Assembly: GCF_905475395.1 (NCBI RefSeq)
Contig: NC_058338.1
Location: 95,589,435 to 95,653,434, forward strand
Source of the DNA: Chrysoperla carnea
Taxonomy: Eukaryota; Arthropoda; Insecta; Neuroptera; Chrysopidae
Direction of reading: 5' to 3'
DNA: 64,000 nt
Position numbers and translations under genes: made by a program. Below the pieces are notes generated by a model. That model had not been told where the DNA came from and searched no databases. It worked only from the letters and a program-made list of their open reading frames with translations. Below, piece after piece: positions 3,047 through 42,168 of the stretch. How positions within the stretch are numbered: position 1 is the stretch's first letter; each line of letters begins with the position of its first letter.

Positions 3047-3562
3047 AACAAGTGAAAACAAACAATTGACTGAGTTAATTGTTGAAATACCATGCATAGT
3101 CAGTGTTGATTTCTTTATCACATTACATATACCAACATGTGACACATACATAACTGATAATCAAGTATAGTACATATTATAAAATTTCCGCCTAACAAAA
3201 GATGTTTAATTTTTGATAAGGAACATTTTTTACATTTAAACTTTTGTTCTATCTCTAACGGTTTACAAGATGGGTCCTACAGACCCAAGACCCAATTGAA
3301 CTATGATGCTCATTTACGAACTTGACCTCACTTTTTACGTCCTGAGTACGCTGTAAAAATTTCAGCTCGATATCTTTTTTCGTTTTTGAGTTATCGTGTC
3401 CACAGACGGACGGACGTAAAAAGTGAAAGTGACGTAAAAATTAGGTGATTTTATGAACACCTATGACAAAATTTTTTTCCTAGCATCATTATTTTTAAGC
3501 GTTACAAACTTGGGACTAAACTTAATATACTATGTATATTTCATATATACATGGTATAAAAA
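3047..3562 (+). repeat. Dispersed repeat family A, copy 1
   Basis: Begins at AACAAGTGAAAACAAACAAT and ends just after the near-palindrome TACTATGTATATTTCATATA followed by TACATGGTATAAAA. Contains the recognisable block TTATCGTGTCCACAGACGGA. Other copies lie near 15.86, 19.3, 41.05, 61.2 and 61.8 kb. This copy lacks about 45 bp present in the 19.3-kb copy. Non-coding; class not assigned. Confidence 0.75.
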
Positions 3563-4977: not shown

Positions 4978-5215
4978 TTATTTTTTAATTAAATGACATT
5001 TACCGTGGAAATTTTTTATACACCGGTAATCAATTTTTTTTTTCTTTTTTATTATATAACATGTACCGTGGAAATTTTTATACACCGGTATCAATATTTT
5101 TTTAATTAAATGACATTTACCGTGGAAATTTTTTATACACCGGTAATCAATTTTTTTTTCTTTTTTATTATATAACATGTACCGTGGAAATTTTTATACA
5201 CCGGTATCAATATTT
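4978..5215. repeat. Two-copy tandem repeat of about 117 bp
   Basis: Each unit contains two related halves with the phrase ACCGTGGAAATTTTTATACA followed by CCGGT, giving four occurrences. Flanking pieces at about 4911 and 5233 carry GACACTTTCCG and ATCACCGGA as degenerate members. No coding role is visible. Confidence 0.8.
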
Positions 5216-5546
5216 ATTTATTTTTTATAATATTTGACACTTTCCGGTAGATTTTTTTTTTATCACCGGAAAAAGAAGTTTAATTAATATATTATTTTTT
5301 GTTTTTAGGTAAACAAATTTCATATTTATTTATTTTAGACATTCTTACTTTTAAGGATGTCAGCTATCCTACTCGTGAGTTTTTGATGGTTTTCCACGAT
5401 GTTTAAGGTGAATACCGGGATAGTCTACGAAAAGTCGGCCATCACCGCATTATCTTTTAATATTATTATTATTATTATATATATATATATTTTTTTTTTT
5501 GACGAATTCTATGTATACATTGTATATCGAAAGAGAACGAATAAAA

Positions 5547-5548
<2 letters not shown>
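5216..5548. other. AT-rich flank of the retrotransposon cluster
   Basis: Contains (ATT)n running into (TA)n and T-runs at about 5460-5500, and no supportable gene. Confidence 0.4.

Positions 5549-5579
<31 letters not shown>
5549..5579. repeat. (ATT)n microsatellite at the 3' end of retrotransposon copy 1
   Basis: About ten ATT units abut the 3' end of the first Dong-like element. This is the target sequence expected for the Dong lineage. Confidence 0.9.
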
Positions 5580-8500
5580 GATTTAAATTTGATATTAACG
5601 TATTCATGTCTGCCAAGGAGGGAGAGAGGATACAGGATTTACACCCCAGAGCCTCCCATCTCCTTGAGAGACATAAATCTTCACAAGGCAGCTACGTCTT
5701 TTGAAGAAAGTTCACTGACTTGTGGCCGTGTAGTCTGTACGTCCGTCAGTCCACGCGACGTCTGTTGGTCCGTCTGTTTTCCGAGTCGGTGGTACGTAAG
5801 TCTGTCTAATGTCCTGGTCAAGCAGGCTCCGTCCCTGCACCGCAGCGATGTGGAACCTACTAAAAGAAAAAAAATAGAAAAAGAAGAAAGAAACTTCAAG
5901 GGCTGTTACTTGAAGACAGTCTGATGCGATCTCAATGTACGAAGGGTGCCTATAATGACAGCCTTCTGCATAGAAGAGATAAGGTGACGAAGATGAGACC
6001 TGCAGACCGGAATTTGAGATAGATTCGTCTCGAGAGTTGGACGAATTCCGCCTAGGCAACCGATAATGAGGACAACCATTTTGACTGAGTAGCCAGGGTG
6101 TAGTTGTCGTAGTTCTTGTAAGAGATCAAGATATTTAGTCCGTTTTTGCTCCTCCTTCGTGACTATGTTCGTTTCTGCAGGCGCAGAGAACTCGATGACA
6201 TACATAGTCTTAGATAAGATATCCTGGAGCACTATATCAGGCTTAGTAGCAGAGAGCTGCCTGGTAGTTGGGAACGAGAAATTCCAGAAGATAATGCATT
6301 TCTCGTTCGTGACGACGGACTCGATCTCGCCTGGAGCATATGGTAGGACTGGCGTAGGGTCCACTTCATACTTGTGTCTCAAGAAGTAGTACAGCACGCG
6401 GAGGGCAGCGTTATGGCGATGTATGTAGGTGTTCGTGGCATAAGAAGGACATGCCGAGATGAGGTGCATCAGCGTCTCCGGCTGAGATTTGCACGCTCTG
6501 CACATAGTGGTGGAGACTGCTTGCTTATATACATACTTTTGGTGAGTTAGCGTCGCTATCACACCATCTTGGGCAGCGATGATAAAGCCTTCTGTTTCGG
6601 ACTTGAGTCCAGCTGATCGGAGAAAAGAGAACGTAAGATCAACGGAAAGACTACAGGTGTCTAGATGACGGTAGAACATTCCCTGATGGTCACGATTCCG
6701 ATGATCTTCGAAGAGGGAGCGTATTTCAGCTCGTTTTACAGCTGAACGAAGTCGAGATTTGGAGAGAAGGACCACGTTATCATCAAGATCACAATTAGAC
6801 GGATCAAAAGCAAGGCCCAATTTAGACGCTGCATGTTGTGCTGCAGAGAACAAGAATGCTCCTTTACCCTGTAACTCATGATCGCGCACGAGTTTCATAA
6901 GAGGGTCAGAACTATTTATGACCTGACAAGCTATTCCTAAAACTACCCTATCATGTAGACATTCAACGGATAAGAGACCTCTACCTCCTTGCTGGCGTGG
7001 GAGGTAATTACGCGGTACAGAAGCACGTGAGTGCAAACTACGATTGACGTTCATGAGTTTGCGAGTGCCTCTATCAAGTTCCTTAAGCTCCTCTATTGTC
7101 CATTTGATGGAACCAAAAGAATAGAGAAGGATGGGTATTGCAAGCATATTAGTAGCACGGATCTTATGGATCCCAGACAATTCTGATTGCCAGATTTGTC
7201 GAAGACGGTGCCTATACCTGCCGCGAAGAGCTTCCTTGACAGTAGACACACTTTGAATGTGGTTTTCACCGACACCCAAATATGTGTAGAGCTCTTCTTC
7301 ATCGAGATGTTTCACGATGCTTCCATCTGTGAGCTGCACGTCTGCATCGTAATCAGGGACACGACCCCTCTTACAATGAATGACGGCACATTTATCGAGT
7401 CCGAATTCCATGCCAATAGCCTTCGTGTACTGATGGACAGCTTTGAGAGCTTGAGATAGACTGCTCTCAGAAGAAGCATAAAGTTTCAGGTCATCCATAT
7501 AGAATAGATGAGTTACCTGATGCTTCCTATCTGTCGGGGGACCACAACGGTAACCAGTTTCTTCTCGCAAGCGCAAGGAAAGGGGCATAAGGGAGATGCA
7601 GAATAAAAGCGGGCTAAGGCTGTCGCCTTGATAGACACCACGCTTATACGTTACCAGATCTGTTGAGACAGTACGTTTACCACATCTAATGGTAAATTTG
7701 GTCTTCCACAAAGGTAACAGCTCTTCGATGCATCTGATGATATCGGGGTGAATTTTCAAACATTTGAGCAGCACCAATATGAGTTGGTGAGAGGTAGTGT
7801 CAAATGCTTTCCTATAATCCACCCAGGCCATACTCAGGTCGCGCTGATACTGACGAGCGTCTTGACAGATACATCTGTCAACAAGAAGATTATCTTTGCA
7901 ACCTGATATACCTCGTTTGGAGCCGCGTTGCTCGTATATCATCTGCCAAACCGGTTCTATGGATGTGAGTATGCGTTCATTAAGAATGGAGGTGAACGCT
8001 TTGTACACGGTATTGAGACATGTAATCGGGCGATAATTGCTCGGAACTGAAAGGTCTCCTTTCTTGGGAATCAAAACTGTTCGTCCTTCCGCGAACCACG
8101 TTGGAAAGGTCCCGTACCCAAGGATGTATGAAGTAAAGTGCCTAGCAAGATGTGCGTGTGTGGAAGTTAAACGTTTCCACCAGAAGTTGGACACAGCATC
8201 CATGCCAGGCGCCGAATGATTCTTCTTGCTTTTGAAAGCAAGGGATACTTCATCAGCGGTAATTGATGTTAGGACCGCTTGTTCTGCTAGGCGCGCGTTG
8301 CAGAACCTTTCGAACAGTTTGATTGGTCTTATATTTTTATCTACACTAGTCGACTTTTCATATAAATCACGCCAGTAGCCATCGATTTGCTCTATCGAAG
8401 GTGGATTCTCGACGAGAGAAGGGGGTTTTGCGAATAAACGGGAAGGATTCGATACAAAGATCTTGTTCTCTCGAATACACTTCTCGCGTTTAACTAGCTT

Positions 8501-9935
8501 TTTTCGAGCGAGAGCTAGTGCACGTATCTTTTCAATGTTTCGCTGCTTGATAGTGAGCAGGATACCCTTGTTTAGTGTGTGGTGTTGGTGCCTGAGTTCA
8601 CGCGCGAAGGCTCGCACCTTTGGGGTGAAGGGTTTACCAGCTTTCTGGTACTCTAACACACACTCGATACGTGATACCGTCTGTCGAAGAGGCGTCAACT
8701 TGGAGTCAAGTTGCTCTATACGCTTGCGTGTTTTCTCCTCGGCTGTCTCAGTAGACTTGGGGGCGGGAGAAAGAGCACACATTGCAGCATAGACTGAGCT
8801 ATCGATTTCGAGTAGGCTACTTGTGCGATTTAGATGATCGTCGACGATCTGGTTGATTAAAGCAAGGTCTTGTGCTTTGGCAAACGTTTTGCGATACTTT
8901 GGACGTTTGCGTTTGGAAAGGTCATTATCGGTTATGAACAGGATATTTTGAAACCGTTCTTTAAGCTCTTCCAAACGAGTGTTTGGTGGCTCAGCAGGAA
9001 GGATCGGAGTTTCCTCTACGTTCGCTTCCGTGGTCGAAGTGAGTGGCGTGGCTGTTTCCGCCGTTAACACAGGTAGTGCTGGGATATCTCTGGGTATCAG
9101 AGGCGTAGGTGGTGAAGCCTCTAACACAGGTGGTGGTGGGGTATTTTGACATACCCGATCCTGTGTCTCAGTATCAGATCTCTCACTCTCTAATACTGGC
9201 TCATCCTGAGATATTCCATCCTGTGTCTCAGCAACTAATGTCTCACGTGTAGAATGAACTACACCAGTAGCAGCCGGCTCTATCTCATCACCTTGATTCA
9301 CTTCCGCTTGCGTAGTCCTGCATTGTTTCTTTTGTCCTGTTCGGGGGTTGTCAAATCCGGTTTTTTTGAGACGGGATACTTGATCGCGCAGATGTTGCGA
9401 TTTCATGTGGGAAAGTTCGGGATGCTTTTCGCACCAGAGGGTGTGCATCCTGCCCATATAGCCACGTCTCGATGGTTCACTTGCTTCGTAGCAAGTGAGC
9501 AGGTCAGCCTTAAGTGCCTTCGTCCATTGAAAGCGCTGAAGACGACTGTTTTGTGTGCTCGCTCGACTTTCTTGAGAAGTGCCTTGAGATGGCTCTTCGT
9601 CGTCAGCGGCACGTCTAGTCTCCGGGACTAGCCTGGGATCCAAAGCCAAATTTGATTGCTCTCCCTCATATCCGTGAGAGCTACCCCCTATAGGTAAGGT
9701 AGAAGCGTCACCTGCAGGGGGGCGGGGTTCTGTAGGACTGGGTCGACTACTACCCGCCTGAGGACCGAAAAATCTGCTTCTCAAATTTGACATTTTTGGA
9801 TTTGACTCATTTAGCTCCGCTGAGTCAGCACGGACCCACCTCGTTAGCCCATCACTTTGAGCGGAATTGATGGTTACCGGGTATGGCACGTGTCCTAGTG
9901 TTAGGCTCGGACGTGAGGTTAGGGATTGCCTGCCC
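5580..9935 (-). mobile_element. Dong/R4-clade non-LTR retrotransposon, copy 1, full length
   Basis: A complete element of about 4.36 kb on the minus strand, bounded on both sides by (TTA)n microsatellite. It holds one long frame encoding a DNA-binding N-terminus, reverse transcriptase and a restriction-enzyme-like endonuclease. The 3' untranslated part (5580-5905) contains a run of GTCCGTCTGTC-like imperfect repeats. Dong elements are known to insert into TAA repeats, and both flanks here agree. It is nearly identical to the neighbouring copy, indicating recent activity. Confidence 0.9.
5906..9793 (-). CDS. Dong/R4-type retrotransposon polyprotein (RT plus REL endonuclease), copy 1
   Basis: The single ORF carries out target-primed reverse transcription: an endonuclease nicks the TAA-repeat target and the reverse transcriptase copies the element RNA there. 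Counting from the first in-frame ATG (9793) it has 1295 residues. A Myb/SANT-like DNA-binding segment lies at about 86-145. The RT core is at about 555-800, with GRTVLIPKKGD, the motif A block DYRKAFD, QGDSLSPLLF and the catalytic YMDD at 765-768. A C-X2-C-X7-H-X4-C knuckle sits at 1098-1115, followed by the PD...E...K-type endonuclease from about 1185. There are no stops or frameshifts. The frame stays open upstream of the ATG (a GTG lies at 9889) right into the flanking repeat, so the true start is uncertain. YMDDLKLYA plus the CCHC/REL end supports the R4/Dong clade over R2. Confidence 0.9.
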   Translation of the reverse strand: MSNLRSRFFGPQAGSSRPSPTEPRPPAGDASTLPIGGSSHGYEGEQSNLALDPRLVPETRRAADDEEPSQGTSQESRASTQNSRLQRFQWTKALKADLLTCYEASEPSRRGYMGRMHTLWCEKHPELSHMKSQHLRDQVSRLKKTGFDNPRTGQKKQCRTTQAEVNQGDEIEPAATGVVHSTRETLVAETQDGISQDEPVLESERSDTETQDRVCQNTPPPPVLEASPPTPLIPRDIPALPVLTAETATPLTSTTEANVEETPILPAEPPNTRLEELKERFQNILFITDNDLSKRKRPKYRKTFAKAQDLALINQIVDDHLNRTSSLLEIDSSVYAAMCALSPAPKSTETAEEKTRKRIEQLDSKLTPLRQTVSRIECVLEYQKAGKPFTPKVRAFARELRHQHHTLNKGILLTIKQRNIEKIRALALARKKLVKREKCIRENKIFVSNPSRLFAKPPSLVENPPSIEQIDGYWRDLYEKSTSVDKNIRPIKLFERFCNARLAEQAVLTSITADEVSLAFKSKKNHSAPGMDAVSNFWWKRLTSTHAHLARHFTSYILGYGTFPTWFAEGRTVLIPKKGDLSVPSNYRPITCLNTVYKAFTSILNERILTSIEPVWQMIYEQRGSKRGISGCKDNLLVDRCICQDARQYQRDLSMAWVDYRKAFDTTSHQLILVLLKCLKIHPDIIRCIEELLPLWKTKFTIRCGKRTVSTDLVTYKRGVYQGDSLSPLLFCISLMPLSLRLREETGYRCGPPTDRKHQVTHLFYMDDLKLYASSESSLSQALKAVHQYTKAIGMEFGLDKCAVIHCKRGRVPDYDADVQLTDGSIVKHLDEEELYTYLGVGENHIQSVSTVKEALRGRYRHRLRQIWQSELSGIHKIRATNMLAIPILLYSFGSIKWTIEELKELDRGTRKLMNVNRSLHSRASVPRNYLPRQQGGRGLLSVECLHDRVVLGIACQVINSSDPLMKLVRDHELQGKGAFLFSAAQHAASKLGLAFDPSNCDLDDNVVLLSKSRLRSAVKRAEIRSLFEDHRNRDHQGMFYRHLDTCSLSVDLTFSFLRSAGLKSETEGFIIAAQDGVIATLTHQKYVYKQAVSTTMCRACKSQPETLMHLISACPSYATNTYIHRHNAALRVLYYFLRHKYEVDPTPVLPYAPGEIESVVTNEKCIIFWNFSFPTTRQLSATKPDIVLQDILSKTMYVIEFSAPAETNIVTKEEQKRTKYLDLLQELRQLHPGYSVKMVVLIIGCLGGIRPTLETNLSQIPVCRSHLRHLISSMQKAVIIGTLRTLRSHQTVFK

Positions 9936-9979
<44 letters not shown>
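9936..9979. repeat. (TTA)n microsatellite between the two retrotransposons
   Basis: About 44 bp of uninterrupted TTA repeat is the only DNA between the 5' end of copy 1 and the 3' end of copy 2. Confidence 0.95.
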
Positions 9980-12900
9980 TAAAATTTGAAATTAACGAAT
10001 TCATGCCTGCCAAGGAGGGAGAGAGGATACAGGATTTACACCCCAGAGCGTCCCATCTCCTTGAGAGACATAAATCTTCACAAGGCAGCTGCGTCTTTTG
10101 AAGAAAGTTCATTGACTTGTGGCCGTGTAGTCTGTACGTCCATCAGTCCACGCGACGTCCGTTGGTCCGTCTGTCTTCCGAGTCGGTGGTACGTAAGTCT
10201 GTCTAATGTCCTGGTCAAGCAGGCTCCGTCCCTGCACCGCAGCGATGTGGAACCTACTAAAAGAAATAAAAGAAAAGAAAAAGAAAAAAGAAACTTCAAG
10301 GGCTGTTACTTGAAGACAGTCTGATGCGATCTCAATGTACGAAGGGTGCCTATAATGACAGCCTTCTGCATGGAAGAGATAAGGTGACGAAGATGAGACC
10401 TGCAGACCGGAATTTGAGATAGATTCGTCTCGAGAGTTGGACGAATTCCGCCTAGGCAACCGATAATGAGGACAACCATTTTGACTGAGTAGCCAGGGTG
10501 TAGTTGTCGTAGTTCTTGTAAGAGATCAAGATATTTAGTCCGTTTTTGCTCCTCCTTCGTGACTATGTTCGTTTCTGCAGGCGCAGAGAACTCGATGACG
10601 TACATAGTCTTAGATAAGATATCCTGGAGCACTATATCAGGCTTAGTAGCAGAGAGCTGCCTGGTAGTTGGGAACGAGAAATTCCAGAAGATAATGCATT
10701 TCTCGTTCTTGACGACGGACTCGATCTCGCCTGGAGCATATGGTAGGACTGGCGTAGGGTCCACTTCATACTTGTGTCTCAAGAAGTAGTACAGCACGCG
10801 GAGGGCAGCGTTATGGCGATGTATGTAGGTGTTCGTGGCATAAGAAGGACATGCCGAGATGAGGTGCATCAGCGTCTCCGGCTGAGATTTGCACGCTCTG
10901 CACATAGTGGTGGAGACTGCTTCTTTACATACATACTTTTGGTGAGTTAGCGTCGCTATCACACCATCTTGGGCAGCGATGATAAAGCCTTCTGTTTCTG
11001 ACTTGAGTCCAGCTGATCGCAGAAAAGAGAACGTAAGATCAACGGAAAGACTACAGGTGTCTAGATGACGGTAGAACATTCCCTGATGGTCACGATTCCG
11101 ATGATCTTCGAAGAGGGAGCGTATTTCAGCTCGTTTCACAGCTGAACGAAGTCGAGATTTGGAGAGAAGGACCACGTTATCATCAAGATCACGATTAGAC
11201 GGATCAAAAGCAAGGCCCAATTTAGACGCTGCATGTTGTGCTGCAGAGAACAAGAATGCTCCTTTACCCTGTAACTCATGATCGCGCACGAGTTCCATAA
11301 GAGGGTCTGAACTATTTATGACCTGACAAGCTATTCCTAAAACTACCCTATCATGTAGACATTCAACGGATAGGAGACCTCTACCTCCTTGCTGGCGTGG
11401 GAGGTAATTACGCGGTACAGAAGCACGTGGGTGCAAACTACGATTGACGTTCATGAGTTTGCGAGTGCCTCTGTCAAGTTCCTTAAGCTCCTCTATTGTC
11501 CATTTGATGGAACCAAAAGAATAGAGAAGGATGGGTATTGAAAGCATATTAGTAGCACGGATCTTATGGATCCCAGACAATTCTGATTGCCAGATTTGTC
11601 GAAGACGGTGCCTATACCTGCCGCGAAGAGCTTCCTTGACAGTAGACACACTTTGAATGTGGTTTTCACCGACACCCAAATATGTGTAGAGCTCTTCTTC
11701 ATCGAGATGTTTCACGATGCTTCCATCTGTGAGCTGCACGTCTGCATCGTAATCAGGGACACGACCCCTCTTACAATGAATGACGGCACATTTATCGAGT
11801 CCGAATTCCATGCCAATAGCCTTCGTGTACTGATGGACAGCTTTGAGAGCTTGAGATAGACTGCTCTCAGAAGAAGCATAAAGTTTCAGGTCATCCATAT
11901 AGAATAGATGAGTAACCTGATGCTTCCTATCTGTCGGGGGACCACAACGGTAACCAGTTTCTTCTCGCAAGCGCAAGGAAAGGGGCATAAGGGAGATGCA
12001 GAATAAAAGCGGGCTAAGGCTGTCGCCTTGATAGACACCACGCTTATACGTTACCGGATCTGTTGAGACAGTACGTTTACCACATCTAATGGTAAATTTG
12101 GTCTTCCACAAAGGTAACAGCTCTTCGATGCATCTGATGATATCGGGGTGAATTTTCAAACATTTGAGCAGCACCAATATGAGTTGGTGAGAGGTAGTGT
12201 CAAATGCTTTCCTATAATCCACCCAGGCCATACTCAGGTCGCGTTGATATTGACGGGCGTCTTGACAGATACATCTGTCAACAAGAAGATTATCTTTGCA
12301 ACCTGATATACCTCGTTTGGAGCCGCGTTGCTCGTATATCATCTGCCAAACCGGTTCTATGGTTGTGAGTATGCGTTCATTAAGAATGGAGGTGAACGCT
12401 TTGTACACGGTATTGAGACATGTAATCGGGCGATAATTGCTCGGAACTGAAAGGTCTCCTTTCTTGGGAATCAAAACTGTTCGTCCTTCGGCGAACCACG
12501 TTGGAAAGGTCCCGTACCCAAGGATGTATGACGTAAAGTGCCTAGCAAGATGTGCGTGTGTGGAAGTTAAACGTTTCCACCAGAAGTTAGACACAGCATC
12601 CATGCCAGGTGCCGAATGATTCTTCTTGCCTTTGAAAGCAAGGGATACTTCATCAGCGGTAACAGATGTTAGGACCGCTTGTTCTGTTAGGCGCGCGTTG
12701 CAGAACCTTTCGAACAGTTTGATTGGTCTTATATTTTTATCTACACTAGTCGACTTTTCATATAAATCACGCCAGTAGCCATCGATTTGCTCTATCGAAG
12801 GTGGATTCTCGACGAGAGAAGGGGGTTTTGCAAATAAACGGGAAGGATTCGATACAAAGATCTTGTTCTCTCGAATACACTTCTCGCGTTTAACCAGCTT

Positions 12901-14335
12901 TTTCCGAGCGAGAGCTAGTGCACGTATCCTTTCAATGTTTCGCTGCTTGATAGTGAGCAGGATACCCTTGTTTAGTGTGTGGTGTTGGTGCCTGAGTTCA
13001 CGCGCGAAGGCTCGCACCTTTGGGGTGAAGGGTTTACCAGCTTTCTGGTACTCTAACACACACTCGATACGTGATACCGTCTGTCGAAGAGGGGTCAACT
13101 TGGAGTCAAGTTGCTCTATACGCTTGCGTGTTTTCTCCTCGGCTGTCTCAGTAGACTTGGGGGCAGGAGAAAGAGCACACACTGCAGCATAGACTGAGCT
13201 ATCGATTTCGAGTAGGCTACTTGTGTGATTCAGATGATCGCCGACGATCTGGTTGATTAAAGCAAGGTCTTGTGCTTTGGCAAACGTTTTGCGGTACTTG
13301 GGACGTTTGCGTTTGGAAAGGTCATTATCGGTTTTGAACAGGATATTTTGAAACCGTTCTTTAAGCTCTTCCAAACGAGTGTTTGGTGGCTCAGCAGGAA
13401 GGATCGGAGTTTCCTCTACGTTCGCTTCCGTGGTCGAAGTGAGTGGCGTGGCTGTTTCCGCCGTTAACACAGGTAGTGCTGGGATATCTCTGGGTATCAG
13501 AGGCGTAGGTGGTGAAGCCTCTAACACAAGTGGTGGTGGGGTATTTTGACATACCCGATCCTGTGTCTCAGTATCAGATCTCTCACTCTCTAATACTGGC
13601 TCATCCTGAGATATTCCATCCTGTGTCTCAGCAACTAATGTCTCACGTGTAGAATGAACTACACCAGTAGCAGCCGGCTCTATCTCATCACCTTGATTCA
13701 CTTCCGCTTGCGTAGTCCTGCATTGTTTCTTTTGTCCTGTTCGGGGGTTGTCAAATCCGGTTTTTTTGAGACGGGATACTTGATCGCGCAGATGTTGCGA
13801 TTTCATGTGGGAAAGTTCGGGATGCTTTTCGCACCAGAGGGTGTGCATCCTGCCCATATAGCCACGTCTCGCTGGTTCACTTGCTTCGTAGCAAGTGAGC
13901 AGGTCAGCCTTAAGTGCCTTCGTCCATTGAAAGCGCTGAAGACGACTGTTTTGTGTGCTCGCTCGACTTTCTTGAGAAGTGCCTTGAGATGGCTCTTCGT
14001 CGTCAGCGGCACGTCTAGTCTCCGGGACTAGCCTGGGATCCAAAGCCAAATTTGATTGCTCTCCCTCATATCCGTGAGAGCTACCCCCTATAGGTAAGGT
14101 AGAAGCGTCACCTGCAGGGGGGCGGGGTTCTGTAGGACTGGGTCGACTACTACCCGCCTGAGGACCGAAAAATCTGCTTCTCAAATTTGACATGTTTGGA
14201 TTTGACTCATTTAGCTCCGCTGAGTCAGCACGGACCCACCTCGTTAGCCCATCACTTTGAGCGGAATTGATGGTTACCGGGTATGGCACGTGTCCTAGTG
14301 TCAGGCTCGGACGTGAGGTTAGGGATTGCCTGCCC
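9980..14335 (-). mobile_element. Dong/R4-clade non-LTR retrotransposon, copy 2, full length
   Basis: Second complete element of the same length (about 4.36 kb) and orientation as copy 1, again bounded by TTA microsatellite on both sides. Base differences from copy 1 are few and scattered, such as a small indel in the A-rich part of the 3' UTR near 10270. Confidence 0.9.
10306..14193 (-). CDS. Dong/R4-type retrotransposon polyprotein (RT plus REL endonuclease), copy 2
   Basis: Same architecture and length as copy 1: a Myb-like N-terminal segment, reverse transcriptase with YMDD, a CCHC knuckle and a PD-(D/E)xK-like endonuclease, with no stops. By eye there are only about 20 amino-acid differences over some 1,300 residues (for example NPK/NPN, EPS/EPA, LMK/LME and YVYKQ/YVCKE). 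None falls in the visible catalytic motifs. The first in-frame ATG is at 14193, but as in copy 1 the frame is open further upstream (GTG at 14289) through the element end. Both copies could encode working protein; expression is not shown. Confidence 0.9.
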   Translation of the reverse strand: MSNLRSRFFGPQAGSSRPSPTEPRPPAGDASTLPIGGSSHGYEGEQSNLALDPRLVPETRRAADDEEPSQGTSQESRASTQNSRLQRFQWTKALKADLLTCYEASEPARRGYMGRMHTLWCEKHPELSHMKSQHLRDQVSRLKKTGFDNPRTGQKKQCRTTQAEVNQGDEIEPAATGVVHSTRETLVAETQDGISQDEPVLESERSDTETQDRVCQNTPPPLVLEASPPTPLIPRDIPALPVLTAETATPLTSTTEANVEETPILPAEPPNTRLEELKERFQNILFKTDNDLSKRKRPKYRKTFAKAQDLALINQIVGDHLNHTSSLLEIDSSVYAAVCALSPAPKSTETAEEKTRKRIEQLDSKLTPLRQTVSRIECVLEYQKAGKPFTPKVRAFARELRHQHHTLNKGILLTIKQRNIERIRALALARKKLVKREKCIRENKIFVSNPSRLFAKPPSLVENPPSIEQIDGYWRDLYEKSTSVDKNIRPIKLFERFCNARLTEQAVLTSVTADEVSLAFKGKKNHSAPGMDAVSNFWWKRLTSTHAHLARHFTSYILGYGTFPTWFAEGRTVLIPKKGDLSVPSNYRPITCLNTVYKAFTSILNERILTTIEPVWQMIYEQRGSKRGISGCKDNLLVDRCICQDARQYQRDLSMAWVDYRKAFDTTSHQLILVLLKCLKIHPDIIRCIEELLPLWKTKFTIRCGKRTVSTDPVTYKRGVYQGDSLSPLLFCISLMPLSLRLREETGYRCGPPTDRKHQVTHLFYMDDLKLYASSESSLSQALKAVHQYTKAIGMEFGLDKCAVIHCKRGRVPDYDADVQLTDGSIVKHLDEEELYTYLGVGENHIQSVSTVKEALRGRYRHRLRQIWQSELSGIHKIRATNMLSIPILLYSFGSIKWTIEELKELDRGTRKLMNVNRSLHPRASVPRNYLPRQQGGRGLLSVECLHDRVVLGIACQVINSSDPLMELVRDHELQGKGAFLFSAAQHAASKLGLAFDPSNRDLDDNVVLLSKSRLRSAVKRAEIRSLFEDHRNRDHQGMFYRHLDTCSLSVDLTFSFLRSAGLKSETEGFIIAAQDGVIATLTHQKYVCKEAVSTTMCRACKSQPETLMHLISACPSYATNTYIHRHNAALRVLYYFLRHKYEVDPTPVLPYAPGEIESVVKNEKCIIFWNFSFPTTRQLSATKPDIVLQDILSKTMYVIEFSAPAETNIVTKEEQKRTKYLDLLQELRQLHPGYSVKMVVLIIGCLGGIRPTLETNLSQIPVCRSHLRHLISSMQKAVIIGTLRTLRSHQTVFK

Positions 14336-14394
<59 letters not shown>
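14336..14394. repeat. (TTA)n microsatellite upstream of retrotransposon copy 2
   Basis: About 59 bp of TTA units, the longest of the three tracts flanking the Dong pair. Confidence 0.95.
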
Positions 14395-15605
14395 GGTCTA
14401 TAAACTGTAGTTCCAAAGAATTGCAATCCATGAATAATCCAAAATTCATGATGACCTGAAATTAATGAGCCCCATGATAGTCTCATTCTGGTACACTAGA
14501 GCTGCAGTTCTACGAGTAATGACACTGTAATCTCTGGACTATAACATTCTAACACTAAAATCTTAAATATCTCTGAAAATATTAGATTTCTACAAATAAT
14601 AATCAGGTAATAAATTAGAGAAAAATTTAATTTCTACATCTTTTACAACTATTAAATTTTTCACAATGTTAATTTTAAACTACGTATTCTATATGTGTGT
14701 TTTCTGTGAGCCTAGCCTTTACTTTTGCGAGCTGAAATTGCTTGGTAAAAATTTGGAATAATAAAAATACTTTCAAACAAGAAATATCTACGTAGGTACG
14801 TTTGGTAAGAGGTTTGGTATTTGAAAGGTCAAGCTCGTTAATGAGAAAAATCGATAGATAAACAAGGGGTAGAGGGTTCCCAAAGTACAAAATTTTGAAT
14901 TTTTTCAAAATAAAAAATATTTTTGTATTCATACACTCACACATTTTACTGATGTTTGTATTGTGTTGTCAACATAGAATTTTTTTTAAGTAAAATGTGT
15001 ATTTTTTCTATCTATTAAGAGGGATTTCGCTTAGCTAACGAAGCTTCTACGCTACGAATTTTTTTTATTGATTGTCATTGTATTAGTAATTTCCAAATTT
15101 AGAATTTATATTTTCCTATCTATTTCGTTATATAAATCATTAAAAACGCAATAAATGGTCAAGTCAGGTATGTTCTTTACACCTTAAAACAATTGATTAT
15201 GTTCAAAGATTAGAAAATTTGTCATCGATTAATAATAATAATAATAATATACAAAATATTATCATACGTCAATATTTGATAAAAAATTATATTTTAATTC
15301 TAAAATATTTTGTCAGATGTACACAGTATGAGCTACAAGTCATGTCTACAAGTAAAATTTACAAAATTTAAAAAACCCCCGATAAATTTTTCGAATACAG
15401 AACCATAAACTCGCATTTGAAACGTATTATTCTCCATTAAATTACCTTTTTCCTTAGAGCCTTCTCCAAACTGAACCGATTTTGAGGATCATCGCCTATT
15501 TTTTTGTTGTTCCGGATATGTAACCCTAAACTCGCACTTCAAACATAGCTAAGAACATCCCCATTAAATTACCTTTCAAACCAAACAAAAAATCCAGCAG
15601 CACTC
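14395..15605. other. Intergenic AT-rich DNA with short-repeat fragment
   Basis: No gene is supported. The section 15365-15560 (CCCCGATAAATTTTTCGAA, CTCCATTAAATTACCTTT) resembles 35750-35920 and is a dispersed repeat fragment. Confidence 0.4.
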
Positions 15606-15855
15606 AAAGCGCTGACACTATCAGCGCTTTAAGTGCTGCTTGACTGTCTGTGCAGATACTAATCACATCATCCTTCAAATTGGCCAATTGGAGGTGGTCA
15701 GCACATCTCATGATGGCTACCAGCTCTGCCTGGAATACAGTATTGTAACTGTCCAACTTGATGGATGTGTCATTTGCCCTTCTTGGGCCGCAAAACCCCT
15801 CGCCTACACCTTCTGCGGTTTTGGAGCCTTCTTGAATTGGGTCTTGGATTCATCT
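15606..15855 (-). pseudogene. LINE relic: RNase H domain fragment
   Basis: The minus strand reads GSKTAEGVGEGFCGP, then FQAELVAIMRCADHLQL and ICTDSQAALKALIVSA. These match the DGS-T, the catalytic glutamate (AEL-AI) and the DSQAA-KAL motifs of LINE RNase H domains. Only this piece is present. The + strand translation of the same bases is a shadow. It abuts a family A repeat at 15855. Confidence 0.75.
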
Positions 15856-16110
15856 TGTAAACCGTAGGAGATAGAACAAAAATTTAAATGTAAAAAATGT
15901 TTCTTATAAAAAACAAAACAACTTTTGTTTGATACATTTTTTCGTAATCATCACTGTTTACCCGTGAGGGCGTAAATTAGGCCTAAATTTTATAGTATGT
16001 ATTATATGGGAATATCAGTTATGTATGTGTGACATGTATGTATGTGTAATGTGATAGAGTAATCAATATTGTCTATGCATGGTATTTCGACAGTTATCTC
16101 AGTCAATTAT
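15856..16110 (-). repeat. Dispersed repeat family A, partial copy
   Basis: Reverse-orientation partial copy that includes the TGTTTACCCGTGAGGGCG block and the terminal TCAGTCAATTATTTGTTTT, as in the copies at 41.05 and 61.2 kb. Confidence 0.7.
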
Positions 16111-16470
16111 TTGTTTTGACGCAGACATTAAACTGGGCCAAGGTTTTCAAGCTCATTGAAAAGCTCATTCTACTGCAGACATTCTTTGTTCGAAACATTT
16201 TTTCATAAACCCTACAGCTTAGGCAAAAAACGTACTAGAAAGTTTTGCCCAATATTGTTTTTTCTTATCAAAATTGGTATTTCGTATAGTTGTTTCTGCG
16301 AAATTCTTCGAAAAAATTTTTCCAATAAATCCAATAAAAGTGATTCGTTTTTCTATAAAGACCATTTTAGTTCAAATTGAATGAAAAAAACGCACAAAAA
16401 GCTAGATTGTCCAAACTATTTGGTTTACAAAAAAATGTTTATTTAATAAGAACAACTTTCTAAATTAAAG
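16111..16470 (+). repeat. Dispersed repeat family C, copy 1
   Basis: The sequence from AAGCTCATTGAAAAGCTCAT to CTAAATTAAAGCGTTCATG recurs in inverted orientation at about 22.83-23.31 kb. Non-coding. Confidence 0.7.
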
Positions 16471-25707: not shown

Positions 25708-26661
25708 TCTTAATATATATATTTCTTGTGTGTGTTTGTATGTGACTGAACTCCTCCTAGACGGCTGGACCGATTTCGATGAAATTTTTTGTGTGAGTTC
25801 AAGGGGATTGGAGAATGGTTTAGATTTACAATTTGGTCCAGTACAACTGTTTTTGAGGGCTCCGTACCAAAAAAATGAAATTTCATTAAATGGTGGGAGC
25901 GCATATAAATGATATCACATTATATTACAACTTACTATGTGTACTATGTATTTTTTATTGTCAATAGGCATTTTTTAGAGCCATATGCGAGCGCAGCGAG
26001 CTCTATGTGTACTATGTATTTTTTATTGTCAATAGGCATTTATTAGAGCCATATGCGAGCGCAGCGAGCTCCACTGCCGAAGGCCAGGCCAAAGGTCGAA
26101 GCTCAGGCCGGTCCAATAAATGGGAGTTAAATTGGGGTTTAGCGGGACGTGAGCGGCATTTATTAGAGCCATATGCGAGCGCAGCGAGCTCCACTGCCGA
26201 AGGCCAGGCCAAAGGTCGAAGCTCAGGCCGGTCCAATAAATGGGAGTTAAATTGGGGTTTAGCGGGATGAGTGTAGCGGGACGTGAGCGGCATTTATTAG
26301 AGCCATATGCGAGCGCAGCGAGCTCCACTGCCGAAGGCCAGGCCAAAGGTCGAAGCTCAGGCCGGTCCAATAAATGGGAGTTAAATTGGGGTTTAGCGGG
26401 ATGAGTGTAGCGGGACGTGAGCGGCATTTATTAGAGCCATATGCGAGCGCAGCGAGCTCCACTGCCGAAGGCCAGGCCAAAGGTCGAAGCTCAGGCCGGT
26501 CCAATAAATGGGAGTTAAATTGGGGTTTAGCGGGATGAGTGTAGCGGGACGTGAGCGGGAATGGGAGTTAAATTGGGGTGTAGCGGGATGAGTGTAGCGG
26601 GACGTGAGCGGGACGAGTGAGCGGGACGTGTGTACAGGACAACGTCTGTCGGGCCCGCTAG
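25708..26661 (+). mobile_element. Non-autonomous Helitron carrying a GC-rich minisatellite
   Basis: Starts TCTTAATATATATATTTCTT after an A, with the insect repeat phrase GACGGCTGGACCGATTTCGA close behind. It ends ACGTCTGTCGGGCCCGCTAG followed by T, a recognised Helitron-type 3' terminus with CTAG. The host sequence is family D, and related uninterrupted copies at 27.55 and 41.7 kb show the empty site. No Rep/helicase is present. Confidence 0.75.
26033..26620 (+). repeat. GC-rich minisatellite, unit of about 118-133 bp
   Basis: About four nearly identical units, each starting GGCATTTATTAGAGCCATAT, then CGAGCGCAGCGAGCTCCACT, and ending with GTTTAGCGGGATGAGTGTAG; the first lacks the last segment. 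A truncated lead-in unit sits at 25970-26010 and short GAGCGGGA repeats follow. The near-identity of units suggests recent amplification. Open frames through it are an effect of the repeat and are not genes. Confidence 0.9.
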
Positions 26662-29648: not shown

Positions 29649-31755
29649 ATGGCGACTTCAAAAACTACAAATACATATAATCGACAAAATTGGGAAGATG
29701 CTGTAAGTTTACTGTTAAAAATTAACTATAACCTAATTTATATACAAGTCATGAATATTACCCTTGAATATTTCAGGAATTCCCAATTTTATGCCAAACA
29801 TGTTTGGGAGATAATCCATATATACGTATGGTAAGTTCGCGCCATCCCTTTTTCTATAAACCATTTTTACTAAGAATTTTCGTGTTTTAGATGAAAGAAA
29901 AATATGGAAAAGAATGTAAAATATGTTCCCGACCTTTTACGGTATTTCGTTGGTGTCCAGGTGTTCGTATGCGTTTTAAAAAGACTGAAATATGTCAAAC
30001 ATGTAGTCGTCTGAAGAATGTGTGTCAAACATGTTTATTAGATTTAGAATATGGTTTACCAATTCAAGTACGAGATGCAGCACTCAAAATTAAGGATGAT
30101 CTGCCTCGTAGTGATGTCAATAAGGAATATTATATTCAAAATATGGATAATGAGGTAAAGTTTTATGTTTTTTGAATTTGGAGAATTTTATACCCATAAA
30201 ACGCCAAACAATTGGCGCAAATGTTGGAAATTTTAGAATCTCGAAAATGTAATAAGGTTTTGTGTGGATTTTCAGGCGATACCATAAAAAATACCCGACT
30301 AACCGCCGTTTTTACTATTACTGGGTCAAAGTTACTCTATATATCGATTTTTATCAAAATCCAAATCATAAAGTTATTTGTGATTATTTGGAATAAAAAT
30401 TAGGTGCGTTCAGAATTCAGTGGCCTTTTAGTTCATAATAAATACAACAGATGGCAGTATTTGATATATTAAAACTAGCTTGAAAAAGTAAAACCTTTCA
30501 TAATAAGATTTATCCTTTAGGTAAATTTCACCCGAAGCTATTTCCCTGATCGATTGCTGTCAATTTCTTAAAAAACATTTGTGTAGTGGTATAATTAACT
30601 GAAGTTTCGTAATTTTTCCTAGAAAATCTCAAAACCTAGTGGTATTTCGACTAATTTGACTCCACTAAAAACAATTTTTATAATTTGCAGTTAAGTAAAA
30701 ATGATTCAGCTTCTGGAATTGTGGGTGGAAAAGCGGAAACAACAAATGATATGTTAATGCGATTAGCACGTACAACGCCTTATTATAAACGTAATCGACC
30801 TCATGTTTGTTCATTTTGGGTGAAAGGTGAATGTCGACGTGGTGAAGAATGCCCCTATCGACATGAACGTCCAACAGATCCTGACGATCCGTTAGCCGAT
30901 CAAAATATACGTGATCGTTATTATGGTGTCAATGATCCCGTTGCGGATAAATTATTAAGGCGAGCGGCTGCGTTACCTGCATTACCACCGCCAGAGGATA
31001 AAAGTATTACAACTTTGTATATCGGTAATGTTGGAGATCTTACCGAACAAGATTTACGGTAAGCTCTTGTAAATTTAGAGTATAGGAATCCTAAAACTTT
31101 TAATCCGCCAATTTTCAAACAGCATTAATTGATTGTTTTTCTTGGTTACAGTGATTATTTTTATCAATACGGAGAAATTCGGACAGTGTCATTAGTGCCA
31201 CGCCAACAATGTGCATTTATTCAATACACAACACGAAGTGCCGCTGAATTAGCTGCCGAAAAAACATTTAACAAACTTGTAATCGGCGGTCGACGATTAG
31301 CAATCAAATGGGGCCGTTCACAAGGCAGACAAGCCACTGGGGGAATGATTGCTCAAGGTGGTATTGGAACATTTGAACCACTTGAACCGGTACCAGGATT
31401 ACCTGGAGCATTACCCGTACCACCACCAGAATTATCGCATAACTTCTTCAATTTAGAACCAGGTCACATTCCATTACCAAATGTACCGCCTCCGCCATCG
31501 TTAATGGTACCGCACTTATTTGGACCTCCACCGTCTTTCTTCTTTAATCCAGCTGCAGCTGCTATGTCGGCCGCTGCTATTGGAGCTCCACCATCAGTAC
31601 CGCCTGGAACTGAACAGTTTGTTGCACCCGCAGCCGCCGCTAGTTCATCCGTAGCACCAAGTACGCTACCGAAACCTGCGACCACTACTGTTCATTATCC
31701 AAGTCAAGATCCGTCTAGACTTGGTGCAACACAAACTAAAGTTGATAGGGATTAA
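29649..31755 (+). CDS. RBM22: Pre-mRNA-splicing factor RBM22, 5 exons
   Basis: A nuclear spliceosome component (Cwc2/Slt11-like) that contacts U6 and pre-mRNA near the catalytic centre. Exons are 29649-29702, 29777-29830, 29891-30154, 30691-31058 and 31152-31755, with GT/AG introns, giving 447 residues (human RBM22 is about 420). The N-terminal cysteine-rich zinc-binding part is at about 19-100 ([44 protein letters not shown]). A CCCH finger lies at 164-182 (C-X7-C-X5-C-X3-H). One RRM lies at about 232-305, with RNP2 LYIGNV and RNP1 QCAFIQYT. A proline/alanine-rich low-complexity tail follows. All expected domains are present in order and no defects were seen. It converges on SDHAF2. Confidence 0.96.
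30405..30463. repeat. Inverted repeat, right arm, in RBM22 intron 3
   Basis: Mirror of 29449-29512 (AGGTGCGTTCAGAATTCAGT through CAACAGATGGCAGTATTTGA). If the transcript begins upstream of the left arm, the two could pair in the pre-mRNA. Confidence 0.7.
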
Positions 31756-35331: not shown

Positions 35332-38300
35332 ATGTCCACACAATTGGGTACATTAATTTCTTGTATTTTAGCCGAATATTTTGGTGAAACAATTGAAAAA
35401 ATTGGATCATTCTTGTACACATGGGGTCCAAATCCTTTAGCTTTAATATCCAAAAATACGAGTGTACCAATTGAAAAAGTTAGTATGATAGTATTCCTTT
35501 ATCCTTGATGAAATAAATCATTTCTACTTTAAAATAATTTCTATTTCCAGACGAAAATATCATTATGTTTTTTAATTAAATACGGTCTTGTTAACTTTGA
35601 ACCAGGACGAACACCTAGTACAGCCAATTATTATTTAATTCATGAAAAATTATTGCATTTATTGAGATATTCGAGGTAAGTACAAAATAGACGGAATTTA
35701 CGTTCGTTTTAGAAACTTTCAAATTATTTTTGTTTATGAAATTTACAAATTTTAAAAAACTCCCGACAAATGCGGTTTATTTAATTGTAGCCCTCTCCAA
35801 ACTAATCCAATTTTCTGGAAACATATCTGAAAATACTCTCCATTTAATTACCTTTCAAAAAAAATCGGTTCATCCGCTTAGGATCTACGGTTCCCAGACT
35901 GACTGTCAAACGTATAACACCCCTCTTTTATGATTGGGAGCTTAAAATGAAAGTATAAATGCTGTATATTAAGCATTTTGAGCCTAAAAGCTAAAATATT
36001 AACCGTGACCGTTATTTTTAGGGTACGTAGGCAGTTAAAGAAAATTGTCATCATCTGTTCGCGGGGTCTCGCGTGTGGCTTGGCACCCATTAATGCGCAG
36101 TGTATCTATTACTTATCCTATTACTTATTGCCTAAACTATCAGAATCCAAGATTATAATTTCGGGCTAAAATTAGTGCTTCAACTTACGAACACAATTTT
36201 AATCCGAGGCAACAGCGGCGACCCCCATTCATGTGCCGCGATCAAAAAAATACATTAAATTTCACCCATAAAAAAATTAAATATAATTAAAATCCGTCAA
36301 TTGTTATCACTTAATTTGAAAGGAGACAATTCTTCGTCTCAAAACTTTTCTAGGGGACATTAGAACGAGGTATTAAAAAATGGGACAGCTTCGTTAAAAA
36401 CGGGACGAACGATACATTAAATATTTCCCATACTTCGAGAAAGTAATTTCCATGAAAGAGAAGACAAGCTTAGATTTTTTGACAGTAGACAAGGCAATTT
36501 GTTGGGGCCCCTAGACGATGTGAAAATCAGACAGTGTCTTGTTTCTTTTAGTCTTCGTAAATCAACCGAGCGCCTCCTTGTGCGTCGCACTTTAAAAAAT
36601 TATTTTTTAGTCTTCATAAATCAACTTGGTGCGCGGTCTTTCTCTTAAAAATTTGCCTCTTATCCTTTTTCTTTCAGTCGTCGTAAAACAATTAGGTGCC
36701 TTCTTGCGCGGAGTCCTTTTCAAAAAAAAATTGTATTTTTAACCTTCGTAAATCAACTTGTCGACTCTTCTCATAAAAATTTGTTTCTCCCTTTTTTCTT
36801 TTAGTCTTCGTAAACCAACTTTGCGCCCCCTTCTGTGTGGCCTTTTTCACAAAAATTTATTTTTTAGTCTTCGTAAAACAACTCAGCACCCCTTCTCATA
36901 TAAATTTATATTTTTGTCTTTTAATCCGCCTAATGGTTAATCCGTCACTGTTTTTGGGGTATAATTTGAATTTGGGTTAAAATTTTAGGTATATTGCAAT
37001 TATAAAAAAGAAATATGGTAACATAGCCGAAGTAACTCTCGAAAATATTCTCTGTCATGGTATTGTTCGAGCATCGGATACAATTTTAGCGATTGCAAAG
37101 CGATTACAACAGCAGAACGATGAAGAAGAAACTGTCGATTTATCACGATTACGTGATATGTTTTTTACATTTATCGCAAATCAATACATAATGCGTGTAC
37201 CTTCCCCGATTTCGGATAATGAAAAAATACCAACACTGAAAATCTCTGAGCGTGATTTATATTTAGCGCCTGAGATTGATATTAAACTATTATCGGAAAT
37301 ATTTAATGAAACAAATGCTGAGAATAAAAAAGAACATACGAATGATAAGGATGTTTATTGGCGGATAAATTTTGATCGATTTCATCAAGATTTCCGTGAT
37401 GCTACACTTATATCGGCCGTTAAACGACGTACAGATGAAAATGGCGGTGAATTAATGGCGATTTTATTGAAATTAATGTATATACGAACGGAACCATGGG
37501 CGGATATTTCGAATCCGATACCGGTCAGTGAAATTAAGGATGTTTTACGAAATCAAAATACAAATCCAAATTTATTGCTGTATTTGGATCAATACTTAAC
37601 TATAATTGGTAAGATTATTGTTTTTTTTTCGTTTTAAAATATAATATACCGAAATAACTCGGTCGAAACAACTCCGGTTAAATTACTCAGTAAAACAACG
37701 ACTCAATACAAAAAGAATTCCCGCAAAAGTTTCTTAGTTTGGATACAGACATTGGGTTGGGAAAATCATTTGAGACCCCATTAAAGGCATGACACACCCG
37801 TGGATCAGAGAGAGAACGAAATCACAGGGTACTGCAAGGGCAAGGGGATGTTGTTTTTATACCGAATTTTTGTGATCAGAGTTGTTTTGGCAACGAGTTG
37901 CTTCTATCAGAGTGTTTGTTAATGACCGAATTGTTTGAGCCAGAGTTATTAAATATCGACTATTCATTACGTTTCCCAATTTTTGGGGATATGCTTAGTT
38001 CTGGGTCCATCATGCCATTGAACAACAAATTTCTGAGATTTTGACTGAAGAAATTCCTCCGGGATCATCCCTTGAATTTGATTTTAGTCGTTTTTTAAAT
38101 TTAGAGTATTTTTGATCCTAAAAATACAAAAGTCGAATTCAATTAACGATTGTATCTACAGTTTTTGAGTTCAGGGTCTTCTTAAACATATTGAGCGGCA
38201 GGGTGCGTGCATGAGGGAGCGGGTTTTTTTTTTGTCTTCGTGAAGGAACTTGTTACGACCTTTCCTCCTTGTGGCGTACTTTTATACAAATTTGTATTTT

Positions 38301-40733: not shown

Positions 40734-42168
40734 ACATCATGGTAATAAAGAAAAAATTAATGCATCTTTGAAATTTTCCACGTTTGCTTATTAGGTTTAT
40801 TAGGATGTAAACACTGCGTAAAAAAAGTCTACCATTATTTTTGTTTAGGGGGGAGGGTATGTTAATCAATTTTTACAAATTACAATAAAACTATGCATTA
40901 AATTAAAAAAAATTAATTAAATAGTATTTGAACTGAAATATTTGTGCACATTTGCGTTTTTTTTCTACTTTCTAGCTTTAAAATTGACCGAGATATGTCA
41001 ATTTTAATATGGAATTTTTTTGCTCATTCAATCAAATGAAAAAGTATCCATCTTGTAAACCGTTAGAGATACAACAAGATTAAATGTAAAAGTTATTCTT
41101 TATAAAAAATTTAGCAACTTTTGTTTGAAACATTTTTTCGTTAACATCACTGTTAACCCGTGAGGGTGCAAATTAGGCGTAAATTGTATAGTATGTATTA
41201 TATGGGGATATAAGTTATGTATGTGACATGTATGTATGTTTAATGTGATAGAGTAATCAACACTGTATATGTATGGTATTTCAACAATTAACTCAGTCAA
41301 CTGTTTATTTCCACTTGTTTTTTTTTTAATTTAAATTTTCAGAATTGATTTAGACTTACAATTAGTCCAACTTCAAATTTTTTATAAGGAACATTTCATT
41401 TGAATCATTCTTTCGTAAACATTACTATTTACCCGTGAGGACGCAACTTAGGAAAGAACTTGGGTGTCCATTTTCTTCAAAACTATAAAAAAAAAGTGTG
41501 TTGATTTGTTTTAAGTTAACTTCAACTATTGGTTTTGAAAACATTCTAGAAAAACAAAAAAAAATTCAGAAAATACTCGCGAAGATTTGAGATTTTGCCA
41601 GGCAGATTGGACTAGTTAAGAGTTTTGACTGTAACATATATATTTATCTATTAAAATAACCAAAGAGATTATATAAATTTATTTCATCTCTATGGTAATA
41701 TCAGAACTTTTGAAAATACACTACTGGAATTGTTAACAGAGAGAGAATCACGTCTCAAAGTAGATTGACAAGGATAATAAATACCGAAGCATGGTCATAA
41801 TACGCATGTTTTAATATACAACATAATATCCTGGCGCGTATTTAAAATAAGATTATACCACTTTTAAATAAAATTAAAACAGTATATTTTGTACAAATTA
41901 CCATTTTACCATTTAAAAAATTTTTTTTCATAGAATTAACACACTATTATACTCGTTTGAACGTTAAAACAAAATAAATTTTTATGTGCAGTTGTGATGT
42001 AGCTGATTCTCCGTCAGCTGTTTGAATATTGTATTTTTGCATACTTAGTATACGCTGGGCTCATCTATTTAAAAATATATATGATCTAAGATCAGAACGA
42101 AGCCTGACGTGTTAATTAAAAAGTTTCAATTTTATGTTTGTGAAATTAATTAATAAAAACTTAACAAA
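40734..42168. other. Intergenic region before the C2H2 gene, with two repeats
   Basis: Holds a family A partial copy in reverse orientation (about 41052-41322) and a family D copy (about 41700-42080; GGAATTGTTAACAGAGAGAG, the Helitron empty site). The promoter of the following gene must lie close to the family D copy. Confidence 0.55.

What the first reader, a model, noticed from the sequence alone, without database searches (positions are those of the whole stretch)
5549..14394. Tandem pair of intact Dong-type retrotransposons separated only by target microsatellite
Two equal-length (about 4.36 kb) elements lie head to tail, each with a full-length frame, joined by 44 bp of pure TTA and flanked by TTA on both outer sides. 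About 20 amino-acid differences over some 1,300 residues mean both are young. The arrangement suggests either insertion of one element into the TTA tract next to another, or unequal exchange between TTA tracts. Site-specific elements with their own target duplicated at their ends could build arrays this way.
Basis: partly seen in the sequence, partly recalled or inferred. Interest (0 to 1): 0.75.

Follow-up and report, generated by a model that had tools for sequence, protein, structure and literature searches.

The report
Two jumping genes sharing one microsatellite
Two intact-looking copies of a jumping gene that inserts into TAA repeats sit head to tail, most likely because each landed separately in the same TAA stretch, which is an expected result of a picky element with few landing sites rather than a new mechanism.

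Summary
Two non-LTR retrotransposons (4352 and 4356 nt, minus strand) lie head to tail, joined by 44 bp of pure TTA and flanked by TTA. Each has an uninterrupted 1295-aa frame; they differ at 59 nucleotides and 19 residues. Reverse transcriptase, C-terminal CCHC and PD..E motifs, no N-terminal zinc-finger motif and a TAA target fit the R4/Dong group.

The pair does not look like a duplication of one copy: the copies carry different 3'-end subtypes, each shared with unlinked copies; c2 is 11th closest of 21 to c1; dN/dS is 0.22-0.30. Most likely both inserted separately into one (TAA)n tract.

In the same 559-Mb genome there are 147 matches to the 3' end and 71 to the 5' end, and at least 17 neighbour pairs in one TAA tract. 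With 845 pure TAA tracts of 30 bp or more, 12.7 pairs are expected by chance; a modest excess is not excluded. A good example of a known kind.

The parts
5547..5583 (.). TTA tract at the 3' end of copy c1 (outer left flank)
   Evidence: Tandem Repeats Finder; the AAATCATAA ending next to it is a subtype feature shared with other copies
5584..9935 (-). Copy c1, full-length R4/Dong-like non-LTR retrotransposon, A-type 3' end
5906..9793 (-). c1 single ORF, 1295 aa plus stop: RT (residues 575-841), CCHC at 1098, PD..E at 1184
9936..9979 (.). 44 bp of pure TTA between the two copies: 3' flank of c2 and 5' flank of c1
9980..14335 (-). Copy c2, full-length, T-type 3' end
10306..14193 (-). c2 single ORF, 1295 aa plus stop
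14336..14394 (.). 59 bp of pure TTA at the 5' end of c2 (outer right flank)
14395..14805 (.). Right flank without a second match in the assembly
   Evidence: other matches begin at query base 412 or later; 40 of 2258 candidates were scored

Best explanation
Both copies belong to one recently active R4/Dong-like family that inserts by target-primed reverse transcription into (TAA)n tracts. Insertion leaves TAA on both sides, so an occupied tract remains a target. Two elements of different 3'-end subtypes landed separately in the same tract. Because the tract fixes the strand, the result is head to tail. With about 150 copies and some hundreds of long TAA tracts, repeated use of one tract is expected. 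Shown: the two copies are not each other's duplicate, TAA tracts at the ends of many copies, empty versions of a target repeat, recurrence and common orientation. Inferred: the biochemical steps, the order of the two insertions, and whether both landed on one chromosome or were joined by exchange within the tract.
For: (1) c1 has the A-type 3' end (ACGTTAATATC), c2 the T-type (TCGTTAATTTC); each occurs on several chromosomes: A 28, intermediate 26, T (all others) 78 of 132 listed 3' ends. (2) In an alignment of 25 copies c2 ranks 11th of 21 in closeness to c1; C6_13642 is closer, 1.06% against 1.36%. (3) dN/dS 0.22-0.30 by four methods; 19 nonsynonymous codons against 30.7 expected if neutral, a fraction 0.0002 of 5000 simulations as low: most differences arose while the lineages were under selection. 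(4) Neighbouring copies differ in 3' type in 13 of 20 pairs, 8 of 14 without the C3 array; 57% is expected for random partners. (5) 23 of 23 adjacent listed 3' ends closer than 6 kb are on the same strand; this measure cannot see full-length head-to-head pairs, of which the listed ends show one, at C3:2.77 Mb, in a tract that turns from TTA to TAA. (6) Empty copies of one host repeat: L030 has (TAA)17 and L032 (TAA)10 where L020 has TAA-element-TAA with matching flanks. (7) 845 pure TAA tracts of 30 bp or more (210, 297, 338) and 147 3' ends predict 12.7 same-tract pairs, P(17 or more) 0.14; at least 17 seen. On C1, where the tract lists are complete, 2 pairs seen against 1.2-2.1 expected.
Against: Seen from c2, c1 ranks 4th in the list of nearest copies. 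c1 and c2 fall in the same 7-row clade (support 86/98, bootstrap not settled) and share nearly one haplotype at element positions 501-1000: 1 difference in 500, where the mean pair differs by 2.47%. Two unlinked copies share that haplotype too, so a local exchange is not needed, but partial gene conversion cannot be ruled out. The expectation of 12.7 depends on the 30-bp threshold: with 1500 tracts it is 7.2, with 3000 it is 3.6, and 17 pairs would then be a clear excess. Counting every junction in the C3 array and one imperfect tract on C1 gives 24 pairs, P 0.003 under the uniform model. In the C6:13.64-Mb array two neighbours of the full copy are its closest relatives (0.50% and 0.77%), though the third is not (1.54%, rank 4 of 24).
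Confidence: 0.8

Rival explanations
1. Unequal exchange between TAA tracts joined two different insertions that had been on two alleles of this locus, or duplicated one copy that then diverged.
For: Exchange or conversion between neighbours is visible in the C3:1.2472-1.2596-Mb array: two truncated copies share one unusual fold-back 5' junction, and one of them matches a third copy (1.21%) better than its sister (3.91%). TAA tracts at the ends would allow pairing. c1 and c2 are alike at 501-1000.
Against: Duplication of one copy is contradicted by the different 3' subtypes, the 11th-of-21 rank and the low dN/dS. The allele-joining form is not contradicted by any result here.
Confidence: 0.14
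2. Assembly artefact: two haplotypes, or two loci, wrongly joined in tandem at the TTA tract.
For: Pure microsatellites are weak points of assemblies, and reads could not be inspected.
Against: No second match of the first 411 bp of the right flank among the scored candidates; the outer flanks do not repeat each other apart from a dispersed repeat; the same arrangement recurs at many loci, including junctions with 5'-truncated copies.
Confidence: 0.04
3. Local preference: new copies insert beside existing ones more often than tract number alone predicts, for example because the RNA-protein complex acts near its source. (Compatible with the best explanation, not exclusive.)
For: 17-24 same-tract pairs against 12.7 expected; close relatives with different truncation points next to each other in the C6:13.64-Mb array.
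Against: Regional concentration of copies (45 of 71 5' ends on C6) raises the expectation; neighbour types are mixed as in random pairs; for this pair closer relatives of c1 lie on other chromosomes.
Confidence: 0.15

Closest known systems
Dong of Bombyx mori and the R4/Dong clade
   Same: TAA-repeat target, precise 5' junction with TAA, RT and C-terminal endonuclease. PMC3774820 (passages) used a TAA/Dong junction construct; PMC7998251 (passages) reports (TAA)n targets and a Myb-like N-terminal domain without zinc fingers.
   Different: PMC3774820 reports an HDV-like self-cleaving ribozyme at the Dong 5' end; none was found here by Rfam or by my own scan, which had no power. No R4/Dong reference sequence was available for a tree.
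Utopia-1_NVit in U2 snRNA genes
   Same: Site-specific non-LTR element with a restriction-like endonuclease, stated to be 'occasionally inserted in tandem in U2 genes' (PMC4640811, passages).
   Different: Different lineage (close to NeSL) and target; the target there is a gene, not a microsatellite.
R2
   Same: Best solved-structure relatives of the ORF by sequence (E 1.1e-29); CCHC and PD..D/E endonuclease layout (motif level, partly recalled).
   Different: R2 targets 28S rDNA (PMC3774820 passages) and has Zn-finger motifs with its Myb domain (PMC7998251 passage); none matched here.
MoTeR and FoTeR telomere-associated elements
   Same: Restriction-like-endonuclease elements; [quoted passage not shown]
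   Different: Fungal; endonuclease compared there with SLACS and CRE elements; FoTeRs are described as subtelomeric.

Membership tests
[quoted passage not shown]
   PF00078 E 4.4e-26 and 1.1e-26; R2 and L1 chains in PDB, E 1.1e-29 to 1.1e-14
[quoted passage not shown]
   Motif level only: CRACKSQPETLMHLISAC at 1098 and KPD-X14-E at 1184 in both copies. The motif consensus is partly recalled; no fold was obtained.
[quoted passage not shown]
   71 places match AATAATAA plus the first 14 nt of the element with up to 2 mismatches, reversed-pattern control 0; empty repeat copies L030 and L032. Exceptions among fetched full-length copies: L014 has no TAA tract on its 5' side, L013 an interrupted one.
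[quoted passage not shown]
   No C2H2-type motif in residues 1-340 (regular expression). A single-sequence model gives four helices at 76-145; block pLDDT is 77-91 for residues 91-150 and 49-68 for 71-90.
[quoted passage not shown]
   No ribozyme family among Rfam matches up to E 5; none in a home-made topology scan that also gave no hit in c1, c2 or, as far as its printout tells, a usable control, and was not tried on a known ribozyme.
[quoted passage not shown]
   No R4, Dong, NeSL, CRE or HERO reference sequences were on hand.
R2 clade | 28S rDNA target and N-terminal zinc finger | tested here: not met
   TAA target; no zinc-finger motif

The most novel reading that the evidence does not exclude
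Occupied TAA tracts act as self-renewing landing pads with a local preference: the family builds directional arrays, mostly towards one end of each chromosome, by repeated insertion beside existing copies followed by unequal exchange, so that a dispersed microsatellite-specific element turns into a satellite-like array.
Probability: 0.2. Interest if true: 0.5.

Novelty: new member of a known kind. Interest (0 to 1): 0.36.

Why it matters
It gives a countable case of how target specificity shapes genome structure: few targets, plus a target that survives each insertion, yield same-strand tandem copies without any special mechanism. The C3 array shows a next step, exchange between neighbours. 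My literature searches, judged from their listings, showed no paper on tandem Dong copies in TAA tracts; the library lacks most subscription journals, so this is not proof that none exists.

Tried and rejected
Relatives in viral contigs: no match. Rfam: only matches below the gathering score. HDV-like ribozyme scan: no hit in c1 or c2; since the observed score was 0, all 200 shuffles 'reached' it and the test says nothing. A mutation in the tract at the c1 3' end was first suspected; it turned out to be the A-type 3' end shared by other copies. Duplication of one copy by unequal exchange was rejected for this pair. A special tandem mechanism is not needed at a 30-bp tract threshold, but the comparison is sensitive to that threshold. 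The organism was not identified.

Limits of the counts: the DNA search scored 38 of 397 candidates. The copies in the tree are among the best-scoring ones, 20 full-length and 5 truncated, so intactness (19 of 20) is biased upward. 132 of 147 3' ends had listed positions. The subtype count labels as T every end not listed as A or intermediate. Tract lists were cut at 100 rows, so only C1 could be treated completely; its rows (48, 75 and 99) were counted by eye. One search used 34 tracts for the dense zone of C1; on recount it is 33 for 138.27-139.77 Mb, used. The count of at least 17 pairs is the union of 13 with a gap of 67 bp or less, one more, and three with truncated copies; a few of these tracts are slightly imperfect. 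On checking, my confidence in the best explanation was lowered from 0.83 to 0.80 because c1 ranks 4th from the side of c2, and the exchange rival raised from 0.12 to 0.14.
Full report
What is there. Two elements lie head to tail on the minus strand, c1 at 9935->5584 and c2 at 14335->9980, with TTA tracts of 37, 44 and 59 bp at 5547-5583, 9936-9979 and 14336-14394. They differ by 59 substitutions (39 transitions) and 4 gap columns, the gaps outside the coding frame. Each has a 1295-aa frame from ATG to stop; 19 residues differ and 26 codons differ silently. No other copy was found in the window.

What it is. Pfam finds a reverse transcriptase at residues 575-841. The closest solved chains by sequence are R2 proteins, E 1.1e-29. 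Motif scans find FYMDD at 764, a CCHC at 1098, KPD-X14-E at 1184 and EEQKRTKYLDL at 1214 in both copies, and no zinc-finger motif in the first 340 residues. A single-sequence model of the first 181 residues has four helices at 76-145. With the TAA target this fits R4/Dong as described in PMC7998251 and PMC3774820 (passages seen). Placement in an RT tree could not be tested.

Where it lies. The window is C2:95589435-95653434 of a 559.5-Mb assembly with 337 contigs. The first 411 bp of the right flank had no second match there (40 of 2258 candidates scored).

Are the two copies duplicates of each other? Probably not. In an alignment of 25 copies, c2 is 11th of 21 in closeness to c1 (1.36%; the closest comparable copy is C6_13642 at 1.06%), and the mean over full-length pairs is 1.46%. 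c1 has the A-type 3' end and c2 the T-type, both found on several chromosomes. dN/dS is 0.22 (NG86), 0.30 (YN00), 0.22 (LWL85) and 0.29 (ML); neutral placement of the same 45 coding substitutions gives 30.7 nonsynonymous codons on average, and 19 or fewer in a fraction 0.0002 of 5000 runs. Against this, c1 is the 4th nearest copy in the list for c2, the two share a 7-row clade (support 86/98, bootstrap not settled), and they are nearly identical at element positions 501-1000, a haplotype that two unlinked copies share as well. The family is mosaic.

How common is it? The 5' end after TAA is matched 71 times with up to 2 mismatches, reversed control 0; the 3' end 147 times, reversed control 1. 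An exact 3'-end/TAA/5'-end junction occurs 11 times. Among listed positions, 17 3' ends lie within 200 bp upstream of a 5' end, 13 of them at 67 bp or less. Adding the C6:2754268 junction and three junctions with 5'-truncated copies gives at least 17 same-tract pairs; counting the other junctions of the C3 array and an imperfect tract at C1:138287 kb gives 24. The 23 pairs of adjacent listed 3' ends under 6 kb are all on the same strand. That measure cannot see full-length head-to-head pairs; a check of all listed ends finds one, at C3:2.77 Mb, in a tract that turns from TTA to TAA, so the tract strand appears to set the orientation. Neighbours differ in 3' type in 13 of 20 pairs, 8 of 14 outside the C3 array; 57% is expected for random partners.

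Is that more than chance? TAA tracts of at least 30 pure bases number 210 + 297 + 338 = 845. Random use by 147 copies gives 12.7 same-tract pairs; 17 or more has probability 0.14, 24 or more 0.003. With 1500 tracts the expectation falls to 7.2 and with 3000 to 3.6. On C1, with 222 tracts and 24 listed copies, 1.2 to 2.1 pairs are expected and 2 are seen (C1:138.287 and C1:138.438 Mb). The uniform model ignores that copies are concentrated in some regions, which raises the expectation. So repeated use of a limited target set can explain most of it, and a modest local preference is not excluded.

Target. Six fetched copies (L011, L012, L020, L021, L022, L027) sit in one host repeat with 5' flanks 97-100% identical. 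Of four tract sites read without the element, L030 has (TAA)17 and L032 (TAA)10 between the flanks seen at both sides of the filled site L020; L031 shares only the left flank and L029 neither flank. These are other copies of the repeat, not alleles. Insertion is thus inside the tract. Among fetched full-length copies L014 has no TAA tract on its 5' side and L013 an interrupted one.

Exchange does occur in a larger array. At C3:1.2472-1.2596 Mb about eight copies follow one another: truncated at 4053, 3525, 4233, then 5'-complete, then truncated at 3525, 2457, 4234, then 5'-complete. The middles of the two 5'-complete copies were not read; the distances from their 5' ends to the next listed 3' end are 4311 and 3676 bp, so the last one is shortened or ends in another copy. 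The two 3525 copies share one fold-back 5' junction, so they most likely descend from one insertion, yet one of them matches the 2457 copy (1.21%) better than its sister (3.91%). That points to unequal exchange or conversion between neighbours.

Position. The 71 matched 5' ends lie at C1 131.8-139.3 of 140.0 Mb, C2 89.7-95.6 of 100.7, C3 0.8-2.8 of 94.1, C4 4.7 of 77.5, C5 69.1-76.1 of 76.4, C6 0.5-17.3 of 38.6, and one on C223; C6 holds 45 of 71 with 6.9% of the assembly. Of 132 listed 3' ends 98 lie in these spans. The spans were drawn from the 5' ends themselves, so this is a description, not a test; one full-length copy (L014, C1:129.6 Mb) lies just outside.

Verdict. A sound observation, best explained by high target specificity and few targets. 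Tandem insertion of a site-specific non-LTR element is already in print for Utopia in U2 genes (PMC4640811, passage seen).

Noticed in passing
G000 C3:1247200-1259625 (L035, L036): Head-to-tail array of about eight copies in which two truncated copies share a fold-back 5' junction; points to unequal exchange or conversion between neighbours.
   Followed up: partly
G000 C6:13634200-13649400 (L009, L010): Four-copy head-to-tail array, three copies 5'-truncated at different points; one also lacks its last ~206 nt and runs straight into TAA. Two neighbours are the closest relatives of the full copy, the third is not.
   Followed up: partly
G000 C6:0.5-17.3 Mb and one end of C1-C5: The 71 matched 5' ends lie towards one end of each chromosome, 45 of them on the small C6; 34 of 132 listed 3' ends lie outside these spans.
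   Followed up: partly
G000 C1:138.27-139.77 Mb: 33 of the 222 long TAA tracts of C1 and 11 of its 24 listed copies lie in 1.5 Mb; some tracts belong to a host repeat that is a frequent target (L011, L012, L020, L021, L022, L027; empty L030 and L032).
   Followed up: partly
L016 593, L010 8127, L027 2966: Unusual 5' ends: a short internal segment repeated several times, or a roughly 20-nt duplicate of the copy's own first bases.
   Followed up: no
window 3052-3277 and 15837-16120: Inverted repeat arms around the locus are members of a dispersed repeat with further copies near 19300, 41050 and 61220, not part of the element.
   Followed up: partly
window 4981-5220 and 26035-26558: Tandem repeats of 116 bp (98% match) and 134 bp.
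   Followed up: no
window 30655-31755, 36981-39169, 42157-43221, 52190-53812: ORFs that look like RBM22-type, RNA polymerase III subunit, C2H2 zinc-finger and CREB3-type bZIP genes; names recalled by eye from the translations, not searched.
   Followed up: no
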